Below, one piece after another: positions 1,047 through 19,503 of a stretch of 64,000 bases of DNA. The stretch is taken from assembly GCF_001426525.1 (NCBI RefSeq), contig NZ_LMEW01000001.1:252978-316977 (forward strand). Direction: 5' to 3'. Numbering within the stretch: the first letter of the stretch is position 1; every line of letters starts with the position of its first letter. The notes beneath the pieces were generated by a model, which was not told the DNA's origin, searched no databases, and saw nothing but the letters and a program-made list of their open reading frames with translations. The DNA comes from Massilia sp. Root133 (GTDB lineage Bacteria; Pseudomonadota; Gammaproteobacteria; Burkholderiales; Burkholderiaceae_D). Both the position numbers and the translations under genes were made by a program.

Positions 1047-1439
1047 TTCCCCACCTCGACTTATCGAAAAAATCTATCAATTAATAGAAAAAACTTGTTT
1101 CGCGATCCAACAAAAAATTTCTTGTTTGAAATATGAATGATGCCGCAGCGAGCGGTGAAAACGCAAATGCCTCGTATAAATTTTGTGAAAACTGTGGCGC
1201 ACGGGATGCAGACAAAGATTGTGATTATGCGGGTTTTCGGATAAGTCCAAAGGGTAGGTCTTTGATTTGATAGGAGCGATTGTCAAAATTATTCGATTTA
1301 TCAATAGAATCTTTTTGCTTATTCTTGCTTGACTTTTGCCCTATATTGATTCGGCGTCACATGAGGGAAATCGTGGCGACGACCCGCTTGCAACGAGCGC
1401 AGCGACACGAAATGCGTGGGCGGGCCAACGCGACAATCA
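1047..1439. other. Divergent intergenic region between chemoreceptor and porin
   Basis: This 393-bp stretch is much richer in A and T than its surroundings. No convincing gene is visible in it. It must hold the chemoreceptor promoter on the minus strand; an AT-rich tract with a TATCGAAAAAATC stretch lies at 1064-1100. On the plus strand it holds the porin promoter at 1292-1347. Nothing else recognisable was seen. Confidence 0.6.
1292..1347 (+). promoter_or_regulatory. Porin promoter with shared regulon box
   Basis: The box reads TTCGATTTATCAAT at 1292-1305, followed by CTTTTTGCTT ending at 1320. Exactly 21 nt later is a TATATT -10 at 1342-1347. The same order and the same distances recur before the monooxygenase operon (7115-7170) and before ubiD (17740-17685, minus strand). 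No good -35 hexamer sits 17 nt from the -10, which suits an activator-dependent promoter. The regulator is probably the LysR protein at 6126, by inference only. Confidence 0.6.
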
Positions 1440-2570
1440 ATGAAATTGTGCGCAGTTGTTTATAAATACTGGAGACAAATTATCAAACCGAACGTCCTTG
1501 CACTGGTAGCGGGTGTCCTGAGTTGTGGCGCCGCGCTTGCTCAAACCAATGTCCAGCTCTACGGCAGCGTCGATGAAGGCCTGGATTACGTGAACAACGC
1601 CGGCGGCCAATCGCTGAAAGCCGTCAACGCGGGCAAGCGCTCGCCCGACCGCTTCGGCTTTCGCGGCACCGAAGACCTGGGCGGCGGGCTGAACGCTTTC
1701 TTCAAGCTCGAGACCGGCTTCAATTCCGACTTGGGCAACCAGGCCAATCCGAACAAGTTCTTCAACCGCTACGCCCAGGTCGGGCTGTCCAGCACGCGCT
1801 TCGGCACGCTGACCCTCGGCCACATGCCCGACTTCGCCTACGACTACGTGGGCGTGCTGAACAACAGTGTGCCCGGCATCTCGTGGTCGTACTCGCCCGG
1901 CAACCTCGACAATCTGGCCAACATCTTCGGCATGGACAATGCCATCCGCTACGAGACGCCCGTGATGGCGGGCCTGCAGGTGGGTGTGATGAACGGCTTC
2001 GGCGAGGATCCGTCCAATTTCTCGCGGTCGCGTACGTACTCGGTCGGCTTCCGCTACAACAACGCAGCCCTGAAGCTGGCCGGCTCGTACTCGATGTTCC
2101 ACAACCGGACGGCCGACCTGAAATCGATCTTCGGCGTCACGAACGTACTCGGCCAGAGCCTGGCGGGCGCGCAGTTCAATGCCGACCGCTTCAGCACCGG
2201 CGTGCTGGGCGCCAGTTACCAGGTCGGCATCTTCGTCCCGCACGCGACCATTACCCAGGTCCAGCTCGAGAATGCGCGCGGCGAAGTGATCCAGCGTAAC
2301 CTGCAGGCTGGCGTGAACACGGACCTGAGCGGCGGACGCAAGACGCGCATCCTCGGCTTGTCGACGGCGCATTCCACGTTCGAAGCCATCACGTATAACC
2401 AGTACAACGCATTCCTGAGCCAGTATCTGAGCCCGACCGTCCAGATCTACTGTGGCGCGGCTTACGTCCACGCGTCCGGTCCCGGCGCCCGGGCGACGGC
2501 CTTCGGCTACACGCCGTCCAGCGGACGCACCCAGACCCTGACGCGCGCCGGCGTACAAGTGCAGTTCTGA
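1440..2570 (+). CDS. Gram-negative porin (OmpC-like, porin_4 family), start uncertain
   Basis: This is an outer-membrane beta-barrel porin, presumably for uptake of the island's substrate. The mature part starts near QTNVQLYGSVDEGLDYV after a signal peptide ending CGAALAQ. It shows the family's RFGFRGTEDLGGGL segment and ends in a terminal Phe (VQVQF), the BAM recognition signal. The start is odd. The only ATG giving a sensible leader is at 1440 and has no ribosome binding site. A good GGAGAC site at 1471-1476 points instead to ATT (1479) or ATC (1482), giving a compact leader beginning IIKPNVLALVAG. From 1482 the protein would be 362 residues, normal for the family; from 1440 it is 376. The MFS gene follows after 31 nt. 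Confidence 0.9.
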   Translation: MKLCAVVYKYWRQIIKPNVLALVAGVLSCGAALAQTNVQLYGSVDEGLDYVNNAGGQSLKAVNAGKRSPDRFGFRGTEDLGGGLNAFFKLETGFNSDLGNQANPNKFFNRYAQVGLSSTRFGTLTLGHMPDFAYDYVGVLNNSVPGISWSYSPGNLDNLANIFGMDNAIRYETPVMAGLQVGVMNGFGEDPSNFSRSRTYSVGFRYNNAALKLAGSYSMFHNRTADLKSIFGVTNVLGQSLAGAQFNADRFSTGVLGASYQVGIFVPHATITQVQLENARGEVIQRNLQAGVNTDLSGGRKTRILGLSTAHSTFEAITYNQYNAFLSQYLSPTVQIYCGAAYVHASGPGARATAFGYTPSSGRTQTLTRAGVQVQF

Positions 2571-2601
2571 TCCGATTCGTATTCATCACAGAAGGTGCCA
2601 C

Positions 2602-3996
2602 ATGTTATCCAGCATTACCGACGTCAAGGTTTCGTCCAGCCCGGCAGCGGCCGACCAGGACGGCAGGGGCGCCGCCCTCATCGCCCGCATGGAAAGCGTG
2701 CCGATCTCGCGCTGGCACGTCCGGGCCCGTGTCGTCATGGGCAGCGCCACGTTCTTCGACGCCTTTGACGCGCTGTCGCTGGCCTACGTGCTGCCGGTGT
2801 TGATCGGCATGTGGCATTTGGCGCCCGGCCAAATCGGCTTGCTGATCGCCACCGGCTACATCGGCCAACTGGTCGGCGCTATCTTCTTCGGCTGGCTGGC
2901 CGAGCGCATCGGCAGGGTCAAGAGCGAGTTCTGGACGATTCTCCTGATGTCGGTGATGAGCCTGGCGTGCGCCGCGACGGGCAACTTCAACGGACTGATG
3001 GTGTGCCGCTTCATCCAGGGTATCGGCGTGGGCGGCGGCAATCCGGTCGCGGCCGTCTACATCAACGAGTTGTCGGTGGCGCACAACCGCGGCCGCTTCT
3101 TCCTGCTGTACGAACTGATCTTCCCGCTGGGCCTGCTGGCCGCCGCCCAGGCGGGCTCGCTGCTCGTGCCCCACGTCGGCTGGCAGTCGATGTTCCTCGT
3201 GGGCGGGATTCCCGGCCTGCTGATCGTCGGCTTCATCTGGTGCCTGCCCGAGTCGCCGCGCTGGCTGATCGGCAAGGGCCGTTTCGACGAGGCCGAGCGC
3301 ATCATCGAGCGTATCGAGGCGAGCACGGACAAGCGCATCGAGGTCAAGGCACGTCCGCGGGTGCCCGCGCAGGCAGCCAGGAAGGCCGGCGTGCGCGAAC
3401 TGTTTTCCGCGTTCTACCGCAAGCGCACGTTCGTCGTGTGGGCGCTGTGGGGCACCGCCTACTTCGTGGCAAACGGCCTGAACAACTGGATGCCCAGCCT
3501 GTACAAGACCGTGTACCACCTGCCGCTCGGCCAGGCGCTGCGCCTCGCGTCGATGTCGAACGTGCTCAGCGTGATCTTCGTCCTCGCGTGCGCGTTCCTC
3601 GTCGACCGCGTGGGCCGCCGCCGCTGGGTGATGTCGTCGTTCTCGATCGCCGGCGTGCTGCTCGCCGCACTGTACTTTACCGGCGCGCCGTCGGCGTACG
3701 GCGTGATGCTGCTGGGGTCGACCGCATACGCCGTGATCGGCACGACGACCATCCTGCTGTTCCTTTACACGCCGGAGATTTATCCGACCCGGATGCGCGC
3801 CGTCGGCACGGCGCTGGCGACGTCCTGGTTCCGCGCCGCATCGGCGGCCGGCCCTGCGATCGTCGGCGTGGTGCTCGGTACCAAGGGCGTCGCTCCCGTG
3901 TTCCTGATGTTTGCCGGGGTCTGCGTGCTCGGTCTGCTGGCGGCCCTCGGCATGACGGAGACACGCCAGAAATCACTCGAGGAAATCGCACCCTGA
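2602..3996 (+). CDS. MFS transporter, metabolite:H+ symporter type
   Basis: This is an inner-membrane secondary carrier of 464 residues with about 12 predicted membrane helices. The N-terminal half has [15 protein letters not shown] in helix 1 and a [11 protein letters not shown] loop, which is the MFS A-motif position. The central loop carries PESPRWLIG, typical of the sugar/aromatic-acid porter branch. The ATG follows a GAAGG site. It lies between the porin and the leuC-like gene (stop and next ATG share one base), so it probably carries the same small organic acid that the island consumes. Aromatic-acid and dicarboxylate substrates are both possible; sequence alone does not decide. Confidence 0.88.
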
Positions 3997-5414
3997 TGCG
4001 CACCCTGTACGACAAGCTCTGGGACGAGCACCTCGTGGACCTGGACGAGGACGGCGGCGCGCTGCTGTACGTCGACCGCCACCTCGTGTACGAAGTCACC
4101 AGTCCGCAGGCGTTCGCGGGCCTGGCCGCGGGGGCACGCCCGGTATGGCGCCCCGGCGCCACGTTCGGCGTGTGCGACCACAACGTGCCGACCGCGGGCC
4201 GTGCCGGCGGCATCGCCGATCCGCTCTCGCGGCTGCAGGTGGAGACGCTGGCGCGCAATTGCGACGACAACGGGATCCCGCAATTCCGCATGCTGGACCG
4301 GCGCCAGGGCATCGTGCACGTGGTCGCGCCGGAGCAGGGGTTGACCCTGCCGGGGATGGTCGTCGTGTGCGGCGATTCCCATACGAGCACGCACGGCGCG
4401 CTGGCCGCGCTCGCGTTCGGCATCGGCACGTCCGAGGTCGAGCACGTGCTGGCGACGCAGACGCTGGCCACCCGCAAGAGCCGCACCATGCTCGTGCGGA
4501 TCGACGGCGGCCTGGCACCCGGCTGCAGCGCGAAAGACCTCGCGTTGTACCTGATCGGACGCATCGGCACCGCGGGCGCCACCGGGCACGCGCTCGAATT
4601 TACCGGCGCTGCCGTGCGCGCGCTGTCGATGGAAGGCCGCATGACGCTGTGTAACATGGCGATCGAGGCGGGGGCACGCACGGCGCTGGTCGGCGTGGAC
4701 GACACGACGCTCGACTACCTGCGCGGGCGGCCGTACGCACCCGCCGGTGTGCAGTGGGACGCGGCGGTGAAGGTCTGGCGCGGCCTCGTGTCCGATCCCG
4801 GCGCGCGCTTCGACCGCATGCTCGCGTTCGACGCCGCCGCGGTGGCGCCGCAGGTCACCTGGGGCACGTCGCCCGACATGGTGGCGCCGGTGGGCGCCGC
4901 CGTGCCCGACCCGGACGACGAGGGCGACGCCGGGCGGCGCCGCGCGATGGAAGCGGCACTCGACTACATGGCTCTCGTGCCGGGCACCCGCATCGCCGAT
5001 ATCCCGATCGACAGGGTCTTCATCGGCTCCTGCACCAACGGCCGCATCGAGGACCTGCGCGCGGCCGCCGCCGTGCTCGCGGCCGCGGGTGGCCGCATCG
5101 CGCCGAACGTGCGCCAGGCGCTCGTCGTGCCGGGTTCGGGACTCGTGCGCGAGCAGGCCCAACGCGAGGGCCTGGACCGCGTCTTCACGGCGGCCGGCTT
5201 CGAGTGGCGCGAGCCGGGATGCTCGATGTGCCTGGCGATGAACGACGACCGTCTCGCCCCGGGCGAACGCTGCGCGTCGACGTCGAACCGCAATTTCGAA
5301 GGGCGCCAGGGCGCCGGGGGACGCAGCCATCTCGTCAGCCCGGCGATGGCGGCGGCGGCCGCGCTGGCCGGCCGCTTCGTCGACGTGCGCGCCTTCGCGC
5401 GGGGAGGACGGTGA
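3996..5414 (+). CDS. 3-isopropylmalate dehydratase-type large subunit (LeuC-like hydro-lyase)
   Basis: This is a [4Fe-4S] aconitase-superfamily large subunit of 472 residues. Visible signatures are the N-terminal LYDKLWDEH, the histidine-rich [12 protein letters not shown] loop, and the cysteine ligands in [12 protein letters not shown] and [17 protein letters not shown] follows near the C-terminus. These are the LeuC landmarks. The ATG shares one base with the MFS stop, and the small subunit starts within its own stop codon. No leuB or leuA lies nearby, and the setting is a catabolic operon. It may therefore hydrate a degradation product such as maleate or citraconate rather than make leucine. 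That reassignment is inference; the fold and cofactor are secure. Confidence 0.88.
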
Positions 5415-6064
5415 TGGAACCGTTCACCGTCGTCGACGGGTTGGCGGCGCCGCTGCGACGCGACAACGTCGACACCGACGCGATCCTGCCCAAGCAGTTC
5501 ATGAAGTCGGTCGCGCGGACGGGCTTCGGCCCCAATTTGTTCGACAGCTGGCGCTACCTCGATCCGGGCGAACCGGGCCAGGATCCGGCCATGCGCCGGC
5601 CGAACCCGGATTTCGTGCTGAACCAGCCGCGCTACCGCGCTGCGACGATCCTGCTGGCCGGGCGCAATTTCGGCTGCGGCAGCTCGCGCGAACACGCGCC
5701 CTGGGCGCTGCTGCAGTACGGCTTTCGCGTGCTCGTCGCGGTGGGCTTCGCCGACATCTTCCGCCAGAACTGCACGAAGAACGGGGTGCTGCCGGTCGAG
5801 CTGGGCGACGCGGCGCTGGACATATTGTTCGCGGCGGCGGAAAGCGAGGGCGGCTGCCGCCTGCGCGTCGACCTCGAGCACCAGCGCGTGACCGGGCCGG
5901 GCGGTTTCGCGGCATCGTTCGACATCGCACCCGCGGCGCGTCACGCCCTGCTGGGCGGCCAGGACGAGATTGGCCTGACCCTGCGCCGGCGCGAGCGCAT
6001 CGCCGCGTTCGAGCGCGAGCGGCTGGCCCGCTACCCGTGGCTGGCCGCGTCGATCCAGACCTGA
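5414..6064 (+). CDS. 3-isopropylmalate dehydratase-type small subunit (LeuD-like)
   Basis: This is the 216-residue swivelling small subunit that completes the hydro-lyase with the preceding gene. It carries [15 protein letters not shown] near the N-terminus and the substrate-loop [17 protein letters not shown]. The [12 protein letters not shown] segment is also the LeuD pattern. The start ATG overlaps the large-subunit TGA (ATGA), indicating translational coupling. As with the large subunit, leucine biosynthesis is the family default, but the neighbours are transport and ring-degradation genes. A role as maleate/citraconate-type hydratase is equally plausible. Confidence 0.88.
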
Positions 6065-6125
6065 TCCGCGCTGCTAGAATGGGGGCTTCGGAATCCGTTG
6101 CCGGCAGCGGCCGGCGGTATGCGTC

Positions 6126-7079
6126 ATGAACCTCTCCCTCAGGCAGCTCAAGGTCTTCCTCGGCGTTGCGCAGGCCGCCAGCTTCACCAAGACCGCGCAA
6201 CGCCTGCACCTGTCGCAGGCGGCGCTGTCCGCCATCATCCGCGAACTCGAAACCCAGCTGCAGTGCCGCCTGCTCGACCGCACGACGCGCTCGGTCGCCC
6301 TGACCGAGGCGGGGCGCATGTTCCTGCCCACTGCGGCGCATATCGTCGAGACCATCGAGAACGCGGCGCTCGAACTGCGCAAGATCGGGCGCGAAGAACA
6401 GCGCCTGCTGCGCGTGGGCGTGATGCCGCACATCGCCGTGAGCCTGATGCCGGCGGTGCTCGGCCGCTTCGCCACCCTGTGCCCGCTGGTGCGCGTGGAA
6501 ATCGTCGACAGCACGCCGTCCGAGCTGTTGCGCATGGTCGAAGACGGTGCGCTGGACGCCGCCTTCGGCCCGTTCTTCCGCAAGGAATCCGGCGTCGAGC
6601 GGCTGCAGATCTTCCCCACCCAGCTGATGCTCGCCACCGGGTTGCAGGAGACCGACTGGCCGGACTTCAGCGCCGAGCAGGAAACCTGGCGCGCGCTGCA
6701 GGGCGTCCCGCTGATCTGCTTCCTCGGCGACACGCCGATCCAGCGCATGGTCGAAGAAAGCCTCGGCGCGGCCGCCGTCACCACCGGCAAACGCACGTTC
6801 GTCGGCCACCTCGAGACGGCGATCGCGATGGCGGAGGCGGGATTCGGCGTGGCCGTGGTGCCGTCTATCTCGGCGGCGGCGTGCCAGCGCTACCGTGTAC
6901 GCCTGCATCCGATCCGTCCAGCCATCGAGCTGCCGTTCTACTGCATCACGCGCGCCGGCCGCGCCAGCAACGAGACGCTGTCCCAGCTCTCGGCCGTGTT
7001 CGAGCAGGTCGCGCAAGAATTCAGCGGTGGCAATCCCGTGCTGAAGAAGAGCCGCAAGCGCGCCACCCCGGCATCCTGA
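6126..7079 (+). CDS. LysR-family transcriptional regulator
   Basis: This is a 317-residue LTTR. The N-terminal winged helix-turn-helix reads LRQLKVFLGVAQAASFTK, then LSQAALSAIIRELE, followed by LLDRTTRSVALTEAGR. An effector-binding domain follows from about residue 90. The C-terminus is basic (KKSRKRATPAS). It begins 61 nt after the leuD-like stop, with a possible -10 (TAGAAT) at about 6074 that could give separate expression. It lies exactly between the two operons that share the CGAT-box promoter, so it is the best local candidate for their activator. The inducer is unknown. Confidence 0.9.
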   Translation: MNLSLRQLKVFLGVAQAASFTKTAQRLHLSQAALSAIIRELETQLQCRLLDRTTRSVALTEAGRMFLPTAAHIVETIENAALELRKIGREEQRLLRVGVMPHIAVSLMPAVLGRFATLCPLVRVEIVDSTPSELLRMVEDGALDAAFGPFFRKESGVERLQIFPTQLMLATGLQETDWPDFSAEQETWRALQGVPLICFLGDTPIQRMVEESLGAAAVTTGKRTFVGHLETAIAMAEAGFGVAVVPSISAAACQRYRVRLHPIRPAIELPFYCITRAGRASNETLSQLSAVFEQVAQEFSGGNPVLKKSRKRATPAS

Positions 7080-7114
7080 CGCTTCGATACATACTGTTTA
7101 TATTGTTCGATTTT

Positions 7115-7170
7115 CCCGATTAAACGATAAATTCTTTTTGCTTCCGCTCGCCTGGCCCTTTCTTTATATT
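7115..7170 (+). promoter_or_regulatory. Monooxygenase-operon promoter with shared regulon box
   Basis: The box is CCCGATTAAACGAT at 7115-7128, then TTCTTTTTGCTT ending at 7143. A 21-nt gap leads to TATATT at 7165-7170. Box, TTGCTT and -10 distances equal those before the porin and ubiD. Transcription should begin near 7177. This excludes an in-frame TTG at 7138 as the start of the monooxygenase and supports the ATG at 7201. Confidence 0.6.
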
Positions 7171-7200
7171 GGGTCGCACAAGAACTCAGCGAGACAGCAC

Positions 7201-8391
7201 ATGAACATCGTCATCATCGGGGCGGGCCTCGGCGGCCTGACCGCCGCCAATGCCTTGCTCGACCGGGGCTTCCACGTCACCGTCCTCGAACAGGCCGCGC
7301 AACTCAAGGAGATCGGCGCGGGCGTCCAGCTCAGCGCGAACGCCACCGGCGTGCTGTACCGGCTCGGTCTCGGGCCGGCACTGGAACGCATCGCCTCCGA
7401 GCCGGCCGGAAAGCGCGTGCGCCTGTGGAACACCGGCCAGGCCTGGCCGCTGTTCGACCTCGGCGCCGTGTCGCGTGAGCGCTATGGCTATCCTTACTTC
7501 ACGCTGCACCGCGCCGACCTGCACGCCGTGCTGGCCGACGGCGTGCGCCGGCGCAGCCCGGACGCGATCCGGCTCGGCGTCAAGGTCGACGGCCACCGCC
7601 AGCACGACGACGGCCGCGTGACGGTGCATGCGGCCGACGGCACGACCGTGGTCGCGGACCTCGTGATCGGCGCGGACGGCGTTCACTCGCGGACCCGCGA
7701 AGCGCTGTTCGGACCGGACGCGCCGCGCTTCTCCGGCATCATGGCATGGCGCGGCGTGATCCGCGCCTCCGACCTGCCGGCGCACATGCGCGAACCGTAC
7801 GGCAGCAACTGGGTGGGGCCGGGCGCGCACGTGATCCAGTACCCGCTGCGCGGCGGCGAGCTCGTGAACTTCGTCGGCGCCGTCGAGGGCGGCGGTTGGG
7901 AAGTCGAGTCCTGGTCCGAGCGCGGTACGCACGAGGAGTGCCTGCGCGACTTCGCCGGCTGGCACGAGGATGTGCAGGCGATGATCCGCGCCATCGACGT
8001 GCCGTACAAATGGGCCCTGATGGTGCGCGATCCGATGCCGCAATGGTCGCAGGGCAGCGTGACGCTGCTGGGCGACGCCTGCCATCCCACGCTGCCGTTC
8101 CTGGCCCAGGGCGCGGGCATGGCCCTCGAGGACGGCTATGTCCTGGCGCGCGCGCTGGACCAGTACCGCGGTGACGTTCCCCAGGCGCTGCGCAGCTACG
8201 AGGCCGCGCGCCACGAGCGCACCGCGCGCATCGTGCGCGGCTCCGCGGCGAACGCCGCGCGCTTCCACAACCCGGCGCTCGGCCATGCCGAGGGCGCCGC
8301 CGCCTACGTCGGCACCGAATGGAGCGAGGACCGCGTCAAGGAACGCTACGAATGGCTGTTCCAGTACGACGTCGACGCCGTTCCCCTGTAA
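7201..8391 (+). CDS. FAD-dependent aromatic ring monooxygenase (salicylate / 3-hydroxybenzoate hydroxylase family)
   Basis: This is a 396-residue single-component flavoprotein hydroxylase using NAD(P)H and O2. The Rossmann fingerprint IIGAGLGGLTAANAL starts at residue 4. The middle DG motif is IGADGVHSRTRE. The FAD-ribityl site is GDACHPTLPFLAQGAGMALEDG-like, which I give by its edges GDACHP and GMALED. The closest families by pattern are salicylate 1-hydroxylase, 3-hydroxybenzoate 6-hydroxylase and 6-hydroxynicotinate 3-monooxygenase. It heads an operon of tightly packed genes running to about 15960. The likely role is to introduce the hydroxyl that readies the ring for cleavage by the next gene product; the exact substrate is not readable. 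Confidence 0.9.
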   Translation: MNIVIIGAGLGGLTAANALLDRGFHVTVLEQAAQLKEIGAGVQLSANATGVLYRLGLGPALERIASEPAGKRVRLWNTGQAWPLFDLGAVSRERYGYPYFTLHRADLHAVLADGVRRRSPDAIRLGVKVDGHRQHDDGRVTVHAADGTTVVADLVIGADGVHSRTREALFGPDAPRFSGIMAWRGVIRASDLPAHMREPYGSNWVGPGAHVIQYPLRGGELVNFVGAVEGGGWEVESWSERGTHEECLRDFAGWHEDVQAMIRAIDVPYKWALMVRDPMPQWSQGSVTLLGDACHPTLPFLAQGAGMALEDGYVLARALDQYRGDVPQALRSYEAARHERTARIVRGSAANAARFHNPALGHAEGAAAYVGTEWSEDRVKERYEWLFQYDVDAVPL

Positions 8392-8413
8392 GCCAACCGT
8401 ACAAGGAGACATC

Positions 8414-8941
8414 ATGACCAAGCCGCCCGCCGTGCGCGGACTGCATCACTTCGCCTGGCGCTGCCGCGACGCCGAGGAAACCCGGGCCTTCTACGAAGAC
8501 CTGCTCGGCCTGCCGCTGGTGCACGTCATCCGCCTCGACCGCGTGCCCAGCACCGGCGAGTACTGCCCGTACGTTCACCTGTTCTTCGAGATGAGCGACG
8601 GTTCGAACATCGCTTTCTTCGACCTCGGCGACGGCGTCCGCGCCGAGCCCTCGGCCAACACCCCGGCCTGGGTCAACCACATCGCGCTGCGCGTGGACAG
8701 CCTGGCCGGCCTGGAGGACATGAAGGCGCGCCTGCAGGCCGCCGGCGTGGACGTGATCGGGCCGGTCGACCACCACTTCGTCAAGTCGATCTACTTCTTC
8801 GATCCGAACGGCTTCCGCCTCGAGTTCACGACGCCGACCGGCACGCCCGCGCAGCACGCGGCGTTCCGCAGCGAGGCGCGCGGCCAGCTCGACGACTGGA
8901 CCGCGGAAAAGGCGGCGCGCGCCGCCCGGGCGGTGGACTGA
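8414..8941 (+). CDS. VOC-superfamily protein (glyoxalase / extradiol dioxygenase fold)
   Basis: This is a 175-residue metal-dependent vicinal-oxygen-chelate protein with two beta-alpha-beta-beta-beta modules. Candidate metal ligands are the His pair in GLHHFAWRC, the His in VNHIALRV, and the Glu in RLEFTT, matching a His-His-Glu set. The ATG follows a strong AAGGAGAC site. It is placed between a ring hydroxylase and a fumarylacetoacetase, so a ring-cleaving dioxygenase is the most economical role. Small VOC proteins can also be isomerases or lyases. Its short length, close to a one-domain extradiol enzyme, leaves both open. Confidence 0.82.
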   Translation: MTKPPAVRGLHHFAWRCRDAEETRAFYEDLLGLPLVHVIRLDRVPSTGEYCPYVHLFFEMSDGSNIAFFDLGDGVRAEPSANTPAWVNHIALRVDSLAGLEDMKARLQAAGVDVIGPVDHHFVKSIYFFDPNGFRLEFTTPTGTPAQHAAFRSEARGQLDDWTAEKAARAARAVD

Positions 8942-8942
8942 C

Positions 8943-10283: not shown

Positions 10284-11065
10284 CCGCCCCGACGACGACG
10301 CAGCTGGCGCAGTTCGGCCACGAATTCGGGCGCGGACCGCGCAAGGTAATGGTGTTCGGCGGCGCCTTCGGCCATTCCGGCGACTGGCGCGCGTTCTGCG
10401 AAGGGCTCGATCCGGATGCCGCCACCTGGGTGTTCTTCGACTACCGCGGCTACGGCCGTGCCAGGGCCACCCTCGGCAACTATACCTTCGAGGAAGCAGC
10501 CGTGGACGCGCTGGAACTCGCCGCCGCGCTCGGGTGGGGGCGCTTTTCTCTCGTCGGCCATTCGATGGGCGGCGTGGCGATCCAGCGCGTGCTGCTGGCG
10601 GCGGCGCCGGGCCGGATCGAGCGCATGGTCGCGCTCACGGCGGTGCCGGCCTGCGGATCGCGCATGGACGCGCAGCGCCTCGCCATGTTCGACAAGGCCG
10701 CGCACGACGTCGCGCAGCGCCAGTTCATCCTCGATTTCTCGACCGGCCGCCGGCTGCCCGCCGTGTGGCTGCGGCGCCAGGCGCTCGATTCGGCCGCGTG
10801 TACGGCACCGCAGGCGTTTTCCGGCTACCTGCGCGACTGGGGCACGGTCGACTTTTCCGAGCGCGTGCGCGGCAACCCGGTGCCGGTCATGGTGCTGGCG
10901 GGCGCCTGCGACCCGACATTGACGCGCGAGCTGATGGAGCGGACCTGGCTCGCCTGGTACCCGAACGCGACGCTGGAGGTGCTGGACGGATGCGGCCATT
11001 ACCCGATGCTCGAGGTGCCCCTGGCACTGGCGCGCGCCGTCGGCGATTTCTTGCAACAGCCTTGA
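10280..11065 (+). CDS. Alpha/beta-fold hydrolase
   Basis: This is a 261-residue alpha/beta hydrolase. The nucleophile elbow is LVGHSMGG at about residue 92. The acid is probably in the AGACDPTL turn, and the catalytic His is in CGHYPM near the C-terminus, so a complete triad is visible. It starts inside the fumarylacetoacetase stop codon (ATGA), implying coupled translation. Possible jobs are hydrolysis of an enol-lactone, an ester, a formyl-amide or a thioester formed during ring breakdown. Nothing in the sequence chooses between them. Confidence 0.85.
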   Translation: MTAPTTTQLAQFGHEFGRGPRKVMVFGGAFGHSGDWRAFCEGLDPDAATWVFFDYRGYGRARATLGNYTFEEAAVDALELAAALGWGRFSLVGHSMGGVAIQRVLLAAAPGRIERMVALTAVPACGSRMDAQRLAMFDKAAHDVAQRQFILDFSTGRRLPAVWLRRQALDSAACTAPQAFSGYLRDWGTVDFSERVRGNPVPVMVLAGACDPTLTRELMERTWLAWYPNATLEVLDGCGHYPMLEVPLALARAVGDFLQQP

Positions 11066-11075
11066 GAGAGACAAC

Positions 11076-11876
11076 GTGTACGCATTTTCCTATGTCCGGC
11101 CGGCCACGCTCGCGCAGGCGCTGGCCATCCTGGACGAGCATCCCGATGCCAAGGCGCTGTCCGGCGGCATGACGCTCGTGCCGACCCTGAAACAGCGGCT
11201 GGCCGCGCCGGCCTATCTGGTCGACCTGACCCGCCTCGACGAACTGCGCGGCATCACGCTGGAGGGAAACCTGTTGCGCATCGGCGCGGCCACCCGCCAC
11301 GCCGAAGTGGCCGCGAGCGGCGTCGTGCGCGGCGCGATTCCCGCGCTGGCCGGCCTGGCCGGGCTGATCGCCGATCCGCAGGTGCGCAACCGCGGCACCA
11401 TGGGCGGGTCGGTGGCCAACAACGACCCTGCCGCCGATTACCCGGCCGCCGTGCTGGGCCTGGGCGCGACGGTCGTGACCAGCGCGCGCCGCATCCCGGC
11501 CGACGCGTTTTTCGTCGACATGTTCGAGACCGCGCTGGGCCCGGGCGAACTCGTCGTCGCGATCGAATTCCCGCTGCCGCGCCGCGCGGCCTACCGCAAG
11601 TACCGCCATCCGGCGTCGGGCTATGCGCTCGCGGGCGTGTTCGTCGCCGACGGCGATGCCGGCGTGCGGGTCGCCGTGACGGGCGCGGCGCCGTCGGTGT
11701 TCCGCTGGCACGAGGCCGAGCAGGCGCTGGCGCGCGACTGCGCGGTGGACGCGCTGGCCGGCGTGGCGATGGATCCCGGCCGGATGCTCGACGACGAACG
11801 CATTCCCGCGCGCTATCGCGCCAGCCTCGTCGAGGTATTCACCCGCCGCGCGGTCGCGGCCATGACCGGCGCGTGA
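11076..11876 (+). CDS. Molybdenum hydroxylase, FAD-binding medium subunit (CoxM-like)
   Basis: This is the 266-residue FAD subunit of a xanthine-oxidase-family hydroxylase. It shows the family pattern LSGGMTLVPTLKQRL near residue 30 and the FAD-binding RNRGTMGGSVANNDPAADYP at about 107. It starts with GTG at 11076 behind GAGAGAC. It passes electrons between the [2Fe-2S] subunit and an acceptor. Its operon order is M, G, S, L, with the CoxG-like gene inserted between the FAD and iron-sulfur subunits. Confidence 0.92.
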   Translation: MYAFSYVRPATLAQALAILDEHPDAKALSGGMTLVPTLKQRLAAPAYLVDLTRLDELRGITLEGNLLRIGAATRHAEVAASGVVRGAIPALAGLAGLIADPQVRNRGTMGGSVANNDPAADYPAAVLGLGATVVTSARRIPADAFFVDMFETALGPGELVVAIEFPLPRRAAYRKYRHPASGYALAGVFVADGDAGVRVAVTGAAPSVFRWHEAEQALARDCAVDALAGVAMDPGRMLDDERIPARYRASLVEVFTRRAVAAMTGA

Positions 11877-11901
11877 CGCCGGCATCCACAAGGAGACAAG
11901 C

Positions 11902-12411
11902 ATGGAATTCAACGGAACCCAGGTGATCGCGGCGCCGCGTCACGAAGTGTGGGCAGCCCTCAACGACCCGGCGGTGCTGCAGGCCTGCGTGCCGGGCTGC
12001 GAATCGTTCGGCGCGCGCAGCGACGACGAATACGAAGCCGTGGTGCAGGCCGCGGTGGGCCCCGTCAAGGCGCGTTTCAAGGGCAGCCTGACGCTGTCCG
12101 AACGCCGCCCCGACGAGGGCTACCGTATCGCCGGCAAGGGCGAGGGCGGCATCGCCGGCTTCGGCAAGATGCAGGCCGTCGTCACGCTGGCCGACGCGCC
12201 CGACGGCGGCACCGAACTGACCTATGCGGCCACGGCCGAAGTGGGCGGCAAGCTGGCCCAGGTGGGCTCGCGCCTCGTCGCGTCGGTGGCCAACCGCATG
12301 GCGGACGAGTTCTTCAAGCGCTTCGGCGAACAATTGGCGCCCCCCGTCGAAGCGGCCGCGCCGGAAGAGGGGGCCGAAGCGGCACCGAAGAAATGGTGGC
12401 AGCGCGGCTGA
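11902..12411 (+). CDS. CoxG-like SRPBCC protein
   Basis: This 169-residue protein belongs to the CoxG branch of the SRPBCC/START fold. The pattern is MEFNGTQVIAAPRHEVWAAL at the N-terminus, then a beta-rich middle, and KLAQVGSRLVASVANRMADEFF near the C-terminus, given here by its ends KLAQVGS and MADEFF. CoxG of CO dehydrogenase anchors the enzyme to the membrane (established for that family); here the same job for the adjacent hydroxylase is inferred. The tail is Ala/Glu-rich and ends in KKWWQRG, a basic aromatic tip that might touch membranes. A strong AAGGAGACAAGC leads the ATG. Confidence 0.85.
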   Translation: MEFNGTQVIAAPRHEVWAALNDPAVLQACVPGCESFGARSDDEYEAVVQAAVGPVKARFKGSLTLSERRPDEGYRIAGKGEGGIAGFGKMQAVVTLADAPDGGTELTYAATAEVGGKLAQVGSRLVASVANRMADEFFKRFGEQLAPPVEAAAPEEGAEAAPKKWWQRG

Positions 12412-12443
12412 CGCGGCATCGAACACGAACAGGCAGGTGACAA

Positions 12444-12922
<479 letters not shown>

Positions 12923-12926
<4 letters not shown>

Positions 12927-15244
12927 TCGGCCAACCCCTGCCGCGCCTGGAAGACCGGCGCCTGGTGACGGGCAACGGCCGCTACACGGACGACATCGAC
13001 GTGCCGGGCCAGGCGTACGCCGCGTTCCTGCGCTCGCCGCACGCGCATGCGCGCATCGTCTCCATCGACATCGGTGCCGCGCTGGCCGCACCCGGCGTGA
13101 TCGCCGTTCTGACGGGCGCAGACTACCTCGCGGACGGCTTCCAGGGCATGCAGCACGTGCCGATGCCGCTCGACGCGATCGACCCCACGGCGCCGGCGTT
13201 CCGCGATGCGCTGCACGTGCCGGCCTACAGCCGCCTGCACCTGCCGCTCCCCGTGGACAACGTGCGCCACGTCGGCGAGGCCGTGGCGATGGTGGTCGCC
13301 GACACGGCGGCCCGCGCACGCGACGCCGCCGAGATGATCATGGTCGACTACGACGTGCTCGACGCCGTCGTGCGCGCCGACGACGCACTGGCCCCCGGCG
13401 CGCCGCAGCTGTACGACGATGCGCCGGGCAACCTGTGCTTCGAGGTGCAGCTGGGCGACCGCGCGGCCGCGCAGCGGCTGTTCGCCGATGCCCACCTCGT
13501 CGTGCGCCGCGATTTCCATAACAGCCGCGTGGTGAATTGCCAGATGGAGCCGCGCGCCGCGATCGGCGTGTACGATCCCGCCGAGGGCAGTTACACGCTG
13601 ATCTCGGGCAGCCAGGGCGCGGTGCGCCAGAAGATGTCGCTCGTGGGCGCGCTGCGCGCACCGGCCGACAAGGTGCGCGTGATCTGTCCGGACGTCGGCG
13701 GCGGCTTCGGCCCGCGCAGCTCGGTCAACGTCGAGCAGCTGGCGGTGGTCTGGGCGGCGCGCCGCTGCGGCCGCGCGGTCAAGTGGACGAGCGACCGCAG
13801 CGAGGCGTTCCTGGCGGATTACCAGGGCCGCGACGCCGTGCTGCGCGCCGCCATGGCCTTCGACGCCGAGGGCCGCATCCTCGCCACCGACCACGAGTGG
13901 CTGGGCAACGTGGGTGCGCACACCGTGTCGTACGTGCCGATGTCGAACGGCACCCGCATCATGACGACCGTCTACCACGTGCCGGTAGCGGCCGTGCACA
14001 TCCGCGCGGCGCTCAGCAACACGGCGCCGACGGCGCCCTACCGCGGCGCCGGCCGGCCGGAAGCGCACCACATGATGGAGCGCCTGCTCGACCTGGCCGC
14101 GCACCGCCTCGGCATCGACCGGGTCGAGATCCGCCGCCGCAACATGGTGCCGCGCAGCCGGTTGCCGTACCGCAGCGCGATGGGCCTGACGTACGACAGC
14201 GGCGACTTCATCGGCAACATGGAACGCGTGCTGGAACTGGCCGACTGGGACGGCTTCGCGGCGCGCCGCGCCGCGTCGGCCGCGCGCGGCAAGCTGCGCG
14301 GCATCGGCCTGGCCAACTATGTCGAGGCCCCCGTCGGCGCGCCGCGCGAGCGTATCGAGATGCGGGTACTCGCCGAGGGCGTGGTCGACCTGGTGTCCGG
14401 CACGCAGACGCAGGGCCAGGGCCACGCGACCACGTTCGCCCAGGTCGTGGCGGCGCAGCTGGGCGTACCGCCCGAATCCGTGCGGCTGCGCACGGGCGAC
14501 ACCGCTTTCGTGAGCGTCGGCGGCGGTACGCACTCGGACCGCAGCATGCGCCTGGGCGGCACCCTGATCGTGCAGAACGCGGCCCATGTCGTGGGGCAGG
14601 GCAAGGCGGCGCTGGCGGACCTGCTCGGCGTCGACGTGGCAACCGTCCGCTTCGAGGACGGGACGTTCATTGCCGGCGACACGCGCCTGGGCCTGTTCGA
14701 ACTGGCGGCCAGGCTGGAAAGCGCGGGCAAGCCCCCGCTCGCGTCCGACGCCGAGTTCAACGGCCGCATGGCGGCGCATCCGACCGGCGCCGCGGTGATG
14801 GAACTGGAGATCGACCCGGATACGGGCGAGGTCGAACTGTTGCACTATGCGTCCGTGGACGACGTGGGCCAGCCGATCAATCCGCTGATCGTCGAGGGCC
14901 AGGTGCACGGCGGCCTGGCGCAGGGTATCGGGCAGGCGCTGTCGGAGGGGTATTACGTCGACCGCGACAGCGGGCAGGTGATGTCCGGCTCGTACATGGA
15001 CTACGGCGTGCCGCGCGCCGGCCGCGTGCCGCCGGTCTCGCTCGTATTCGCCGAGGACCCGACCGCCGGCAATCCGCTGCGCGTGAAGGGGGGAGGGGAG
15101 AGCGGCATCACGCCAGCCACCGCAGTCATCTTCAACGCCCTGGCCGACGCGCTCGGCGAGGATGCCCCCGAAGAACTGGAGATGCCCGCCACGCCGGCGG
15201 TCATCTGGAATGCCATCCACCGAGAAAGTCATGCACATGAGTGA
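12923..15244 (+). CDS. Molybdenum hydroxylase, molybdopterin-binding large subunit (CoxL-like, form II type)
   Basis: This is a 773-residue catalytic subunit of the xanthine oxidase family, binding molybdopterin-cytosine dinucleotide. Landmarks are GGGFGPRSS, TAPYRGAGRPEAHH, GTQTQGQGHATTF, GGGTHSDRSMR, and the C-terminal KGGGESGITPA with the catalytic Glu. The active-site loop is PYRGAGR and not the AYRCSFR of true CO dehydrogenase, so it is not a CO oxidiser. It should instead hydroxylate a heteroaromatic ring, an aldehyde or an acyl-CoA substrate. A ring nitrogen or oxygen heterocycle fits the neighbouring genes. It overlaps the crotonase gene by 8 nt. Confidence 0.92.
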
Positions 15245-15959
15245 ACACGTCCACATCCGGCGCGACGGCGCCGTCCTCGACATCCTCCTCGACCGCGCCG
15301 ACAAGGGCAACGCGCTGACCGCCCCGATGGGCGCGGCGATCGTCGCCGCGCTGCGCGGCATCGACGATGACGTCAAGCTCGTCCGCCTCGGCGCGGCCGG
15401 CCCCGATTTCTGCACCGGCCGCGATTCGCCGATCCCGACGCTGGGCGCCAGGCCGTCGGCCGAGACGGTGCGCCAGAAGGTCGCGCTGCCGCCACTCGAA
15501 CTCTACGACGCCATCAAGGCGGTGCCGGTGCCCGTCATCGCCGTCGTGCGAGGGCGCGCCGTGGGCGCGGGCTGCGCGCTGGCCTGCGTGGCCGACCTGG
15601 TGGTGTGCGCGGACGACGCCGTCTTCCAGATTTCCGAGATGGAGCGCGACATTCCGCCGACGCTGGTGATGGCGGCGCTGGTGGACCGCGTGCCCGTCAA
15701 GACGCTGGCGCACATGGTATATGGCCGCGCGCCGCTGGACGCTGCGGATGCGCGTACGGCCGGGCTGGTGTCGCACGTGGTCCCCGCGGCCCGGCTGGAT
15801 GCCGCCGCCGCCGCGCTGGCCGACACCATGCTGGGCAACAGCGCGGTCACCCTGCGCGCCGTGAAACAGTTCCTGGCCGTCGCGCCGGGCATGCCGCCGG
15901 CCAGTGCCAGCGCCTTCGCCGGTCACCTGGCGGCGACGGCGCTGTCGATCCGGTTCTAA
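15237..15959 (+). CDS. Enoyl-CoA hydratase/isomerase (crotonase) family protein
   Basis: This is a 240-residue crotonase fold protein. The oxyanion-hole strands are DFCTGRD and RGRAVGAGCALACVADL. At the place where enoyl-CoA hydratase has its first catalytic Glu (GGCELA) this protein has Ala (GAGCALA). The second acidic position is kept in ISEMERDIPP. A simple hydratase mechanism is therefore doubtful; isomerase, hydrolase or decarboxylase chemistry is possible. Two ATGs compete (15231 and 15237). The second is better spaced from GAGAAAG and is used here. It is the last gene of the operon, followed by a terminator. No CoA ligase is found nearby. Confidence 0.8.
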   Translation: MSEHVHIRRDGAVLDILLDRADKGNALTAPMGAAIVAALRGIDDDVKLVRLGAAGPDFCTGRDSPIPTLGARPSAETVRQKVALPPLELYDAIKAVPVPVIAVVRGRAVGAGCALACVADLVVCADDAVFQISEMERDIPPTLVMAALVDRVPVKTLAHMVYGRAPLDAADARTAGLVSHVVPAARLDAAAAALADTMLGNSAVTLRAVKQFLAVAPGMPPASASAFAGHLAATALSIRF

Positions 15960-15980
15960 CTTCCCCCGGTAGTGCCTTGA

Positions 15981-16012
15981 GCCCCGTGCGCGCGAGCGTA
16001 CGGGGCTTTTTT
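15981..16012 (+). terminator. Rho-independent terminator of the monooxygenase operon
   Basis: The stem GCCCCGT (15981-15987) pairs with ACGGGGC (16000-16006) and is followed by TTTTTT. It lies 21 nt after the crotonase stop, so it closes the operon that starts near 7177. Confidence 0.85.
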
Positions 16013-16028
16013 CGTCCCGTGCGGACGC

Positions 16029-16058
16029 AAAAAAGCCGTCCGGTTTTTGCCGGACGGC
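16029..16058 (-). terminator. Rho-independent terminator of ubiD (minus strand)
   Basis: The stem GCCGTCCGG (16035-16043) pairs with CCGGACGGC (16050-16058) around a five-T loop. The A-run at 16029-16034 becomes the U-tract on the minus strand. It stands back to back with the previous terminator, 18 nt after the ubiD stop. Confidence 0.85.
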
Positions 16059-16076
16059 CGAGGCGGGCGGTGGCGG

Positions 16077-17648
16077 TCAGGCGTAGTGGTAGCGGCCCTC
16101 GTCGTCGCGGCCGATGGCGCGGGTCGCGCCCGTGTCTTCGAGCCAGCGCACGATCTCGCGGCCGTCGCGGCTGCCGACGGCAGCCATCAGTTCCGCGAAC
16201 AGCTTGGGACCGTGCCGCAGCGCCGCGTCGAGCGAATCGAAGCGCGCGCCATCGAAGGTCGGCGCAGCGGGCACGCGGTGCTCGATCGAGCGGCTCGTGC
16301 CCGGGCGCAGGAAGGGCAGGGTCAGGTCGAAGCCGGCCTTCGCCGTGTGATGGGTGCCGGCGAGCGACGGGTCGAGCGGCATCGCGCGCATGCGGTCCTG
16401 CACGACCAGGTCGCGGTCGGCCTGGAAGCGCGTGGCCAGCGCCCAGTCCATTTGCCGGTCCGAGAAGACGTCGATGTCGGGATCCACGACGAACACGTGC
16501 TTGACGTTGGCGAGGCATGCGAACACGGCGGCGATGGCGTTGCGCGCCTCGCCCGGGACGCGCTGCCGCATGGCGATGCGCACGTTGAACATGCCGCCGT
16601 TGGCGGCGCTGGCGTACACCGCCTTCACTTCGCGCACGGCGACTTCCAGCGCGCGCCACACGGTCACCTCGGTGCGCAGGGCGCACAGCTGGGCGGTATC
16701 GGTGGTGTCCATGTCGCGGCCGCTGATCGTGGAGGTCTGGAACACGGCGTCGCGGCGATGGGTGATCGCGGTCAGGTGAAAGAGCGGGTTGCGCTTGACG
16801 CCGCCGTAGTAGCCCAGGAACTCGCCGTACGGGCCTTCCGGTTCGACGTGGCCGTTCGGGTCAAGGTAGCCTTCGAGGATGAATTGCGCGTCGGCCGGTA
16901 CCAGCAGGTCGTTGGTCACGCACTTGACGACGCCCAGCGTCTCGCCGCGCAGGGAAGCCAGCAGTTCGAGTTCGTCGGTCGGCAAGCGCATCGTCGCCGC
17001 GACGTGGTCGATCGGGTGCGTGCCGACGGCGAAGGCGATCGGCAGCGGTTCCCCGCGCGCGGCGTGCTCGAGGTAGATCGCGCGCAGGTCCGACGGTGCG
17101 ATCAGGTCGATGCCGGCGGTGCGGCGGCCGCGCAGCATCAGGCGACGCACGCCGACGTTGGTCCAGCCCGTCGTCCTGTCGACCGTGAAGTCGATCGAGG
17201 AGGAGATGTAGGGGGCGCCGTCGAGCCCGTGCTGCAGGTGGACGGGCAGCTTCGTGAAATCGCAGTCGCCGCCGGTCAGGACCACTTGCTGGACCGGCGC
17301 CGCCGTGCGCGACACCTGCTCGATGGCGGCTTTCTTGCGCAAGCGTGCGAGCACTTCCGCCAGCAGCTTGTCGGTGGTCGTGCCGAAGGCGGCGGCGAGG
17401 CGCTGCCGGCTGCCCGCGAGGTTGCCGCACAGCGGGATCGCGTCGGCGCCGGGTTGTTCGAACAGCACGGCTTTCGGGTTGCCTTCGAGGAGGCGGGCAA
17501 CGTCGGCCAGCTCGACCGGCCCGGCATGGCGCTCGAACTCGCTCGCATCGAGCGAGGCGGCGAAGCGGCGCAGGTCGAAGCGCTCGAGGTCCGGACCGGG
17601 GCCGGCCGGCCGTTGAGCGGACGTGCTGAAATCGGAATGGGAATTCAC
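16077..17648 (-). CDS. UbiD-family prFMN-dependent decarboxylase
   Basis: This is a 523-residue reversible (de)carboxylase of the UbiD family, using prenylated FMN made by UbiX. The signature NVGVRRLML contributes the conserved Arg. EPEGPYGEFLGYY contributes the acidic residues that with the Arg make the catalytic set. ISGRDMDTTDTAQL is a further conserved stretch. Members act on aromatic, heteroaromatic and furan acids (4-hydroxybenzoate, gallate, pyrrole-2-carboxylate, furan-dicarboxylate). Being inside a catabolic island and sharing the regulon promoter, it is more likely catabolic than part of ubiquinone synthesis. It starts at GTG 17648 behind CTGGAGACCACA. Confidence 0.9.
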   Translation of the reverse strand: MNSHSDFSTSAQRPAGPGPDLERFDLRRFAASLDASEFERHAGPVELADVARLLEGNPKAVLFEQPGADAIPLCGNLAGSRQRLAAAFGTTTDKLLAEVLARLRKKAAIEQVSRTAAPVQQVVLTGGDCDFTKLPVHLQHGLDGAPYISSSIDFTVDRTTGWTNVGVRRLMLRGRRTAGIDLIAPSDLRAIYLEHAARGEPLPIAFAVGTHPIDHVAATMRLPTDELELLASLRGETLGVVKCVTNDLLVPADAQFILEGYLDPNGHVEPEGPYGEFLGYYGGVKRNPLFHLTAITHRRDAVFQTSTISGRDMDTTDTAQLCALRTEVTVWRALEVAVREVKAVYASAANGGMFNVRIAMRQRVPGEARNAIAAVFACLANVKHVFVVDPDIDVFSDRQMDWALATRFQADRDLVVQDRMRAMPLDPSLAGTHHTAKAGFDLTLPFLRPGTSRSIEHRVPAAPTFDGARFDSLDAALRHGPKLFAELMAAVGSRDGREIVRWLEDTGATRAIGRDDEGRYHYA

Positions 17649-17684
17649 TGTGGTCTCCAGAGGGTCATGGTGGCTATCACAGCG

Positions 17685-17740
17685 AATCTAATGCACCCGC
17701 GCATAGAACTGAAGCAACAATAAATGATCGATTCATCGAA
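17685..17740 (-). promoter_or_regulatory. ubiD promoter with shared regulon box
   Basis: Read on the minus strand, the box is TTCGATGAATCGAT from 17740. TTGCTT ends at 17712, and 21 nt later comes TAGATT (17690-17685). Distances match those of the porin and monooxygenase promoters exactly. Transcription would begin about 30 nt before the GTG. The box (CGATGAATCG) is the most nearly perfect palindrome of the three. Confidence 0.6.
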
Positions 17741-17830
17741 AAATCTAATTAATTTCGGTGGTCGTCCGTGGTGTGCAACGGTCTGCTACCATCGGCGCTT
17801 CCATCGATTATTCACCAGCGATCATCAATC

Positions 17831-18436: not shown

Positions 18437-18440
18437 AACA

Positions 18441-18462
18441 AAAGGCACCCGAAGGTGCCTTT
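18441..18462. terminator. Bidirectional terminator between ubiX and rpoH
   Basis: AAAGGCACC (18441-18449) pairs with GGTGCCTTT (18454-18462) around a four-base loop. A-rich flanks on the left and T-rich on the right let it serve both ubiX (plus) and rpoH (minus). Confidence 0.75.
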
Positions 18463-18483
18463 GTTGGTAGCCGACAGGATGGC

Positions 18484-19374: not shown

Positions 19375-19503
19375 AGTCACTCCCTCGTAGATAAACTGCT
19401 GCATCGTCTCGCCATCTCCAGAGCCCCGAAGGCGCAGCTGGCTGGCTTGTTGTCGGGATGCTGACGGTGCTATCAAAACCATTTCCCGCGATAGTCTGAC
19501 GTA

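What the first reader, a model, noticed from the sequence alone, without database searches (positions are those of the whole stretch)
1292..17740. Three promoters in the catabolic island share an identical, precisely spaced architecture
At 1292-1347 (porin, +), 7115-7170 (monooxygenase operon, +) and 17740-17685 (ubiD, -) the order is CGAT-N2-A(T/A)C(G/A)AT, then TTGCTT ending 29 nt from the box window start, then exactly 21 nt, then TATATT, TATATT and TAGATT. The surrounding bases differ, so this is not a recent duplication. It ties transport, ring hydroxylation and decarboxylation into one regulon and gives a concrete operator sequence. The local LysR gene (6126-7079) lies between two of the targets.
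Basis: seen in the sequence. Interest (0 to 1): 0.75.

Follow-up and report, generated by a model that had tools for sequence, protein, structure and literature searches.

The report
LysR regulon of an aromatic-catabolism island
Three promoters in a bacterial gene cluster for breaking down an aromatic acid carry the same switch sequence, kept in the same layout in related bacteria, most likely where one regulator protein turns the whole pathway on; this is a new example of a well-known type of control.

Summary
The pattern occurs three times in the 7.1-Mb genome, even with 3 mismatches allowed. A model built only from two other genera finds the same three sites as the best places in the genome.

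The architecture is kept in four island lineages (Massilia, two unnamed genera, Paraburkholderia) in front of genes of the same pathway: porin, monooxygenase operon, ubiD where it has its own promoter, in some a transporter and xdhC.

TTGCTT is not the -35 hexamer; "exactly 21 nt" is a 17-nt spacer plus 4 bases behind a poor -35 (TTC...).

The LysR orthologue (63% identity or more) was found in 4 of 392 family genomes, the same four with two or more sites. Its presumed recognition helix is identical there and in Paraburkholderia.

Best reading: an inducer-responsive LysR activator switching on the pathway, probably its own gene too. New member of a known kind. Binding, start sites and inducer are untested.

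The parts
1279..1321 (+). Operator of the porin promoter (predicted -75 to -33)
   Evidence: one of the 2 of 14 sites without the exact T(-70)-N11-A(-58)
1342..1347 (+). TATATT, predicted -10 hexamer of the porin promoter (predicted start of transcription about 1354, ATG at 1440)
   Evidence: inferred, not mapped
7102..7144 (+). Operator of the monooxygenase-operon promoter (predicted -75 to -33)
   Evidence: best hit of the genome
7165..7170 (+). TATATT, predicted -10 hexamer of the monooxygenase operon (predicted start about 7177, ATG at 7201)
   Evidence: inferred, not mapped
17711..17753 (-). Operator of the ubiD promoter (predicted -75 to -33)
17685..17690 (-). TAGATT, predicted -10 hexamer of ubiD (predicted start about 17678; GTG start codon at 17648)
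   Evidence: inferred, not mapped
6126..7079 (+). LysR-family regulator, proposed activator of the three promoters
   Evidence: Pfam HTH_1 4.8e-20 and LysR_substrate 3e-29; orthologue distribution; conserved DNA-binding domain
1440..2570 (+). Outer-membrane porin (target 1, first gene)
   Evidence: Porin_4 9e-40
2602..3996 (+). MFS transporter, nearest to aromatic-acid/H+ symporters
   Evidence: TIGR00895 best, below its cut-off
3996..5414 (+). LeuC-like aconitase-family large subunit (hydratase)
5414..6064 (+). LeuD-like small subunit
7201..8391 (+). FAD monooxygenase (target 2, first gene of the operon)
   Evidence: FAD_binding_3 3.3e-30; nearest solved relatives tropone 2-monooxygenase, 4-hydroxybenzoate decarboxylase, 6-hydroxynicotinate 3-monooxygenase
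8405..15959 (+). Rest of the operon: VOC protein, fumarylacetoacetase-like hydrolase, alpha/beta hydrolase, CoxM-, CoxG-, FeS- and Mo-binding subunits of a xanthine-dehydrogenase-type enzyme, enoyl-CoA-hydratase-like protein
   Evidence: terminator-like stem at 15979-16008
16077..17648 (-). UbiD-family decarboxylase (target 3)
   Evidence: UbiD 3.8e-55
17831..18436 (+). UbiX flavin prenyltransferase, divergent from ubiD; no site of its own found

Best explanation
The three promoters are activator-dependent sigma-70-type promoters of one LysR-type regulon. A tetramer of the LysR protein (6126-7079) binds a site from about -75 to -33: one dimer on the recognition half, ATTGTTCR-N7-CGAT (T-N11-A centred at -64), the other on the half that reaches the -35 region and ends in TTKTTGCTTC. 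When a pathway compound binds the effector domain, the second dimer is placed to recruit RNA polymerase to a promoter with a good -10 (TAKATT) and a poor -35 (TTC..., 17 nt upstream). Uptake (porin, transporter), hydroxylation and ring opening (monooxygenase operon) and decarboxylation (ubiD) are thus switched on together. lysR follows leuD on the same strand without a predicted terminator, so the porin promoter probably also raises the regulator's own level (positive feedback). Shown by computation: the shared site, its uniqueness in the genome, its conservation with the LysR and the pathway. Inferred: binding by this LysR, the split into two half-sites, activation rather than repression, the start sites, the inducer and the feedback.
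For: Three sites in the own genome; with the ten-site model R1 they score 49.6-60.9 bits and the next place 14.3. A model from two other genera finds them as top three. The three corresponding promoters (ubiD, porin, monooxygenase) carry the site in G096 and G294, and G294 has a fourth in front of xdhC. In Paraburkholderia the four best places of each 36.9-kb island, scored ungapped over 77 columns including the -10, are the MFS, porin, monooxygenase and xdhC promoters (28.4, 20.1, 17.6, 14.3 bits and 28.4, 20.1, 18.0, 11.0; next -11.0 and -10.7). Over the whole replicons R1 reports only places in the islands (3 and 2; stricter filters). LysR orthologue in 4 of 392 family genomes, exactly those with two or more sites. 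Residues 30-45 of the LysR (taken as the recognition helix, recalled) are identical in the 6 co-occurring proteins compared, 81% identical in Pigmentiphaga and 56-75% in 12 of 12 more distant LysRs; the effector domain is only 47-60% identical between lineages. T(-70)-N11-A(-58) in 12 of 14 sites, the best of the offsets tried, where LysR sites are expected (PMC4834489, PMC5603801, passages seen).
Against: No binding or transcription data. Co-occurrence cannot separate LysR from the rest of the island, which travels with it. Dyad symmetry is weak: no inverted repeat is significant after correction over all centres, and the porin site here lacks the exact T-N11-A. Unlike the usual layout, lysR is not divergent from a target. 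G000 and G031 are near-duplicates and count as one lineage. The Paraburkholderia sites are diverged (R1 12.6-16.5 bits), and a second LysR gene lies beside xdhC there (no match to it in the window). The own-genome xdhC homologue has no site. One ordinary promoter-like match (7076-7104, CTGACG-17-TATATT, 9 of 12) lies just upstream of the monooxygenase operator, at the chance level of the scan (1 found, 1.1 expected); it could start transcription instead. Genes flanking the islands were not all scanned for regulators.
Confidence: 0.85

Rival explanations
1. The site is real but read by another regulator (for example an IclR-, MarR- or TetR-type protein encoded elsewhere), and the LysR acts on something else.
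For: The CGAT-N2-ATCG core is palindromic in the ubiD site and resembles IclR-type operators (recalled, no call). G294 has an IclR gene and a TetR gene within about 10 kb of the island; Paraburkholderia has a second LysR and a GntR-type gene nearby. Flanking genes were not all scanned.
Against: LysR is the only transcription factor among the 16 island proteins scanned, and it is kept in all four lineages with a strongly conserved DNA-binding domain. T-N11-A lies at -64 in 12 of 14 sites. The site length (-75 to -33) fits a LysR tetramer.
Confidence: 0.1
2. TTGCTT-N21-TAKATT is the promoter of an alternative sigma factor, perhaps the RpoH-like sigma encoded next door (18484-19482), not an activator site.
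For: A sigma-factor gene with Sigma70_r2 and r4 flanks the island; TTGCTT and TAKATT are among the tightest blocks.
Against: Conservation extends 36 bases upstream of TTGCTT to -75, too far for a sigma factor alone. Only 3 sites in 7.1 Mb. No rpoH match in the G096 and G294 stretches or the Paraburkholderia stretches. The RpoH consensus is different (recalled).
Confidence: 0.02
3. The three promoters are recent copies of one another, similar by descent without function.
For: All three lie within 16.5 kb.
Against: Across ten sites the flanks and most of the -32 to -13 spacer carry at most 1 bit per column (one spacer column 1.5), while many block columns carry 1.5-2 bits; the same blocks are kept in four lineages.
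Confidence: 0.01
4. The LysR works mainly as a repressor, relieved by the inducer.
For: The site ends at -33 and touches the -35 region.
Against: Most of the site lies upstream of the promoter, the -35 is poor, and the layout resembles known LysR-activated promoters (PMC5603801, passages).
Confidence: 0.05

Closest known systems
PnpR/PnpM regulon of para-nitrophenol degradation, Pseudomonas sp. WBC-3 (PMC5603801; passages including part of the abstract seen)
   Same: One LysR-type regulator activating several separate operons of one aromatic pathway and its own gene, through T-N11-A type sites upstream of the -35.
   Different: Its sites are GTT-N11-AAC, and one promoter has 20 instead of 9-10 nt between site and -35; here the whole site and its distance to the -10 are constant, the sequence is different, and so is the pathway.
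ThnR-controlled tetralin promoters (PMC4834489; passages seen)
   Same: LysR-type activation with a primary site near -65 and a secondary site near the -35.
   Different: Divergent close promoters with cooperative activation; [quoted passage not shown]
BenM/CatM of Acinetobacter (best-scoring solved relatives of the LysR by sequence)
   Same: LysR-type activators of aromatic-acid catabolism (function recalled).
   Different: Only distant similarity (E 3.6e-19 at best); their operator ATAC-N7-GTAT (recalled) is not this one.

Membership tests
LysR-type transcriptional regulator (protein) | N-terminal HTH_1 and C-terminal LysR_substrate domains | tested here: met
   HTH_1 4.8e-20 (residues 5-64), LysR_substrate 3e-29 (89-294), both above cut-off
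LysR-type regulated promoter | Recognition site with T-N11-A centred near -65 | tested here: met
   T(-70)-N11-A(-58), centre -64, in 12 of 14 sites, best of the offsets tried; numbering assumes TAKATT is the -10; symmetry not significant after correction
LysR-type regulated promoter | Second contact site near the -35 of the target promoter | tested here: inconclusive
   A conserved element lies at -46 to -33, the right place, but contact by the protein is not shown
LysR-type regulated promoter | Common (not obligatory) layout: regulator gene divergent from its target and repressing itself through the shared site | tested here: not met
   lysR is on the same strand as leuD and the monooxygenase gene here and in G096/G294; no site in front of lysR
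LysR-type regulated promoter | Binding by the tetramer and inducer-dependent activation | not testable with these tools
   needs EMSA, footprint and reporter assays
IclR-type (PobR/PcaU-like) regulon | An IclR-family gene kept with the island | tested here: not met
   No IclR domain among the 18 window proteins scanned; found near the G294 island and not in the annotated Paraburkholderia stretch

The most novel reading that the evidence does not exclude
An uncharacterised catabolic pathway (FAD monooxygenase, VOC protein, fumarylacetoacetase-like hydrolase, Mo-hydroxylase, UbiD) has its own self-amplifying LysR regulon in which the half next to the -35 (TTKTTGCTTC) is read as a specific sequence and is at least as conserved as the recognition half, with a fixed 77-base register kept from Massilia to Paraburkholderia. 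The regulon also recruits the molybdoenzyme's maturation factor XdhC.
Probability: 0.45. Interest if true: 0.55.

Novelty: new member of a known kind. Interest (0 to 1): 0.42.

Why it matters
It gives a concrete, testable operator and regulator for a conserved aromatic or heteroaromatic acid pathway that my paper searches did not find described. The site can serve as a tag to find further pathway genes (it already picked out xdhC and a transporter gene) and, through the regulator, the inducer. The conserved element beside the -35 offers a good case for asking what a LysR tetramer reads there.

Tried and rejected
Other homologous FMO loci (13 fetched): apart from Massilia sp. PDC64 (L010), none of the other 12 (L011-L022) has the pattern at 6 mismatches or fewer. 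With R1, one of these 12, Pigmentiphaga L013, gives a weak hit over model positions 11-75 (10.6 bits, E 0.13 in 364 kb) in front of its TctC-FMO-VOC-FAH operon, where a 50% identical LysR follows: suggestive, not used in the counts.

Symmetry: neither inverted nor direct repeats in the 10-site profile are significant after correction. I do not claim a palindromic operator.

A fourth own-genome site: the next-best places were a partial match at window 1067-1095 (-), 13.2-13.5 bits, and C31:543859 (14.3 bits). I do not count them. The own-genome xdhC homologue (C7:3406-4413) has no site (best of the 2.2 kb scanned -22.3 bits).

The five single hits with 2 mismatches in family genomes without the orthologue (G178, G206, G145, G061, G185) and the 3-mismatch hits in G017, G032 and G055 were treated as background; their gene contexts were not examined.

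Limits of the LysR counts: the family search scored the best 5 candidates per genome and had a cut-off of 1e-55; 392 genomes were drawn from a larger group. each drew 392; the 32 handles that one search lists are all, the other 360 are not shown.

Left out of the 14-site counts: the 3 G031 sites (near-duplicates of G000) and the 4 of the second Paraburkholderia record.

Substrate: paper searches for this gene combination or regulon found nothing on point (no papers; 67, 75 and 77 one listing each, none opened; open-licence PMC only). PMC5343134 reconstructs regulons of 33 regulator groups and was seen only as a listing. NCBIfam equivalog cut-offs were not reached by the monooxygenase, the Mo subunit or UbiD; fumarylacetoacetase and leuCD models were. 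I name no substrate.

Not done: no structure prediction. The R1 scores of its own ten training sites are not evidence.
Full report
What was checked. The three stretches were read and match the finding letter for letter. In the whole own genome (7,145,183 bases in 36 contigs) the complete pattern occurs three times with up to 3 mismatches, and all three are exact. Because the pattern was drawn from the sites, chance was tested in two other ways. First, the best ungapped 54-nt match between the three 250-nt upstream regions has 26 columns identical in all three, against a mean of 15.0 (sd 0.86, maximum 18) in 221 dinucleotide shuffles. Second, a sequence model made only from seven sites of two other genera (R2) was run on the whole own genome: its three best places are these three (E 5.7e-11, 1.6e-7, 7.9e-4), and the fourth has E 0.33.

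Who else has it. Of 62 genus genomes only the own genome and G031 have a close LysR (98%); the next is 37% (cut-off 1e-30). G031 matches Massilia sp. PDC64 in its contig length (177,577) and protein identities, which suggests the window's genus. In 392 family genomes the pattern with up to 2 mismatches occurs in nine: three times each in G000 and G031, twice each in G096 and G294, once each in five others; the reversed control gave none. The LysR at 63% identity or more occurs in G000, G031, G096 and G294; the next best is 41%. In G096 and G294 the island was fetched. It holds ubiX, ubiD, a porin gene, leuC, leuD, lysR and the operon from the monooxygenase to the enoyl-CoA-hydratase-like gene; the MFS gene of the window was not found there. 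The site stands in front of ubiD, of the porin and of the monooxygenase operon in both (G096 porin and G294 ubiD with 3 mismatches). In G294 a TctC-type gene lies between site and monooxygenase.

A fourth lineage. LysR relatives on plasmid records led to Paraburkholderia (56% identity in 4 of 9 records). Two of the four records were read. They hold the same pathway in another order: ubiD at the end of the main operon, then lysR, then xdhC on the other strand, and no leuCD match. A profile from the ten sites of the other lineages, scored without gaps over 77 columns including the -10, gives as its four best places in each island the promoters of an MFS transporter, the porin, the monooxygenase operon and xdhC: 28.4, 20.1, 17.6, 14.3 bits in one and 28.4, 20.1, 18.0, 11.0 in the other; the next values are -11.0 and -10.7. 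Over the whole replicons the only reported hits of R1 are inside the islands (3 and 2; stricter filters). Held-out tests in both directions agree. Sites of the other lineages without any ubiD site give the three window sites at 49.5, 39.7 and 36.0 bits, next 6.2 in the 64-kb window. The three window sites give all three G096 sites (34.9-38.1, next 3.7), all four G294 sites (20.6-45.9, next 8.3) and, more weakly, the four of one Paraburkholderia island as its top four (8.2-23.0).

What the site is. Over 14 sites (three G000, three G096, four G294, four Paraburkholderia; near-duplicates left out) the conserved blocks, numbered with TAKATT as -12 to -7, are ATTGTTC at -75 to -69, TT at -65/-64, AT at -58/-57 and -50/-49, A at -46, TT at -42/-41, and TTGCTTC at -39 to -33, with G-37, T-35 and T-34 in 14 of 14. 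The stretch from -32 to -18 is little conserved. T-N11-A at -70/-58 is present in 12 of 14, more than at any other offset tried. Its centre, -64, is where LysR recognition sites lie, with a second contact near -35 (PMC4834489 and PMC5603801, passages seen). TTGCTT is badly placed for a -35 hexamer; a 17-nt spacer puts the -35 at the TTC that ends TTGCTTC, a poor match to TTGACA. That explains the constant 21 nt. A consensus scan of 1000-18600 does not list the three as ordinary sigma-70 promoters, as expected for activator-dependent ones. Its single match, 7076-7104, lies just upstream of the monooxygenase operator and is at chance level (1.1 expected).

Which protein reads it. Among the 16 proteins of 1440-18436 the only transcription factor is the LysR. 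Its first 60 residues are 92% identical in G096 and G294 and 85% in Paraburkholderia, and residues 30-45 (taken as the recognition helix, recalled) are identical in all six, while the effector domain is 47-60% identical between lineages. In 12 more distant LysRs that stretch is 56-75% identical; in Pigmentiphaga, with a barely recognisable site, 81%. This is what a conserved operator needs, but it is not proof of binding, since the island travels as a unit. Paraburkholderia has a second LysR gene beside xdhC, with no match in the window.

How it probably works. LysR-type activation of uptake, hydroxylation and ring opening, and decarboxylation together, in response to an unidentified pathway compound. 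lysR follows leuD by 61 bp with no terminator-like site on its strand between 1440 and 7079, so it is probably fed by the porin promoter. Convergent terminator-like stems at 15979-16008 and 16059-16034 close the monooxygenase operon and ubiD (the scan as a whole finds no more stems than chance, 9 against 8.8). The substrate is not identified. The monooxygenase is nearest to tropone 2-, 4-hydroxybenzoate and 6-hydroxynicotinate enzymes among solved proteins, and UbiD to two entries named 3-polyprenyl-4-hydroxybenzoate decarboxylase and related.

Verdict. It is a new member of a known kind of regulon, with one less usual trait: the half next to the -35 is well conserved, although the activation site is described as lacking a conserved motif (PMC5603801, introduction passage).

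Noticed in passing
window 3-1046 (-): A chemotaxis-receptor gene (4HB_MCP_1, HAMP; cut by the window start) begins at about 1046 on the minus strand beside the porin promoter. Chemotaxis receptors also lie beside or near the island in G096 and G294 and Paraburkholderia, so chemotaxis to the substrate may belong to the system.
   Followed up: partly
window 1067-1095 (-): A partial match to the operator (13 bits, fourth in the genome with R2), 21-49 nt before the chemotaxis start codon and about 200 nt upstream of the porin site; also present in G031. It could be an auxiliary site or AT-rich chance.
   Followed up: partly
L054:15580-15653 and L092:20016-20092: The operator also stands in front of xdhC (molybdoenzyme maturation) in G294 and Paraburkholderia, but the own-genome xdhC homologue (G000:C7:3406-4413) has no site.
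   Followed up: yes
L092:7341-8527: In Paraburkholderia record AP028202 the monooxygenase is annotated as two short hypothetical proteins, while the match is one stretch in the sister record L093.
   Followed up: no
window 18484-19482 (-): An RpoH-like sigma factor gene borders the island here and in G031, but no match was found in the G096, G294 or Paraburkholderia stretches.
   Followed up: partly
L013:8756-8820: Pigmentiphaga litoralis has a related TctC-FMO-VOC-FAH operon with a 50% identical LysR and a weak, diverged operator in the expected place.
   Followed up: partly
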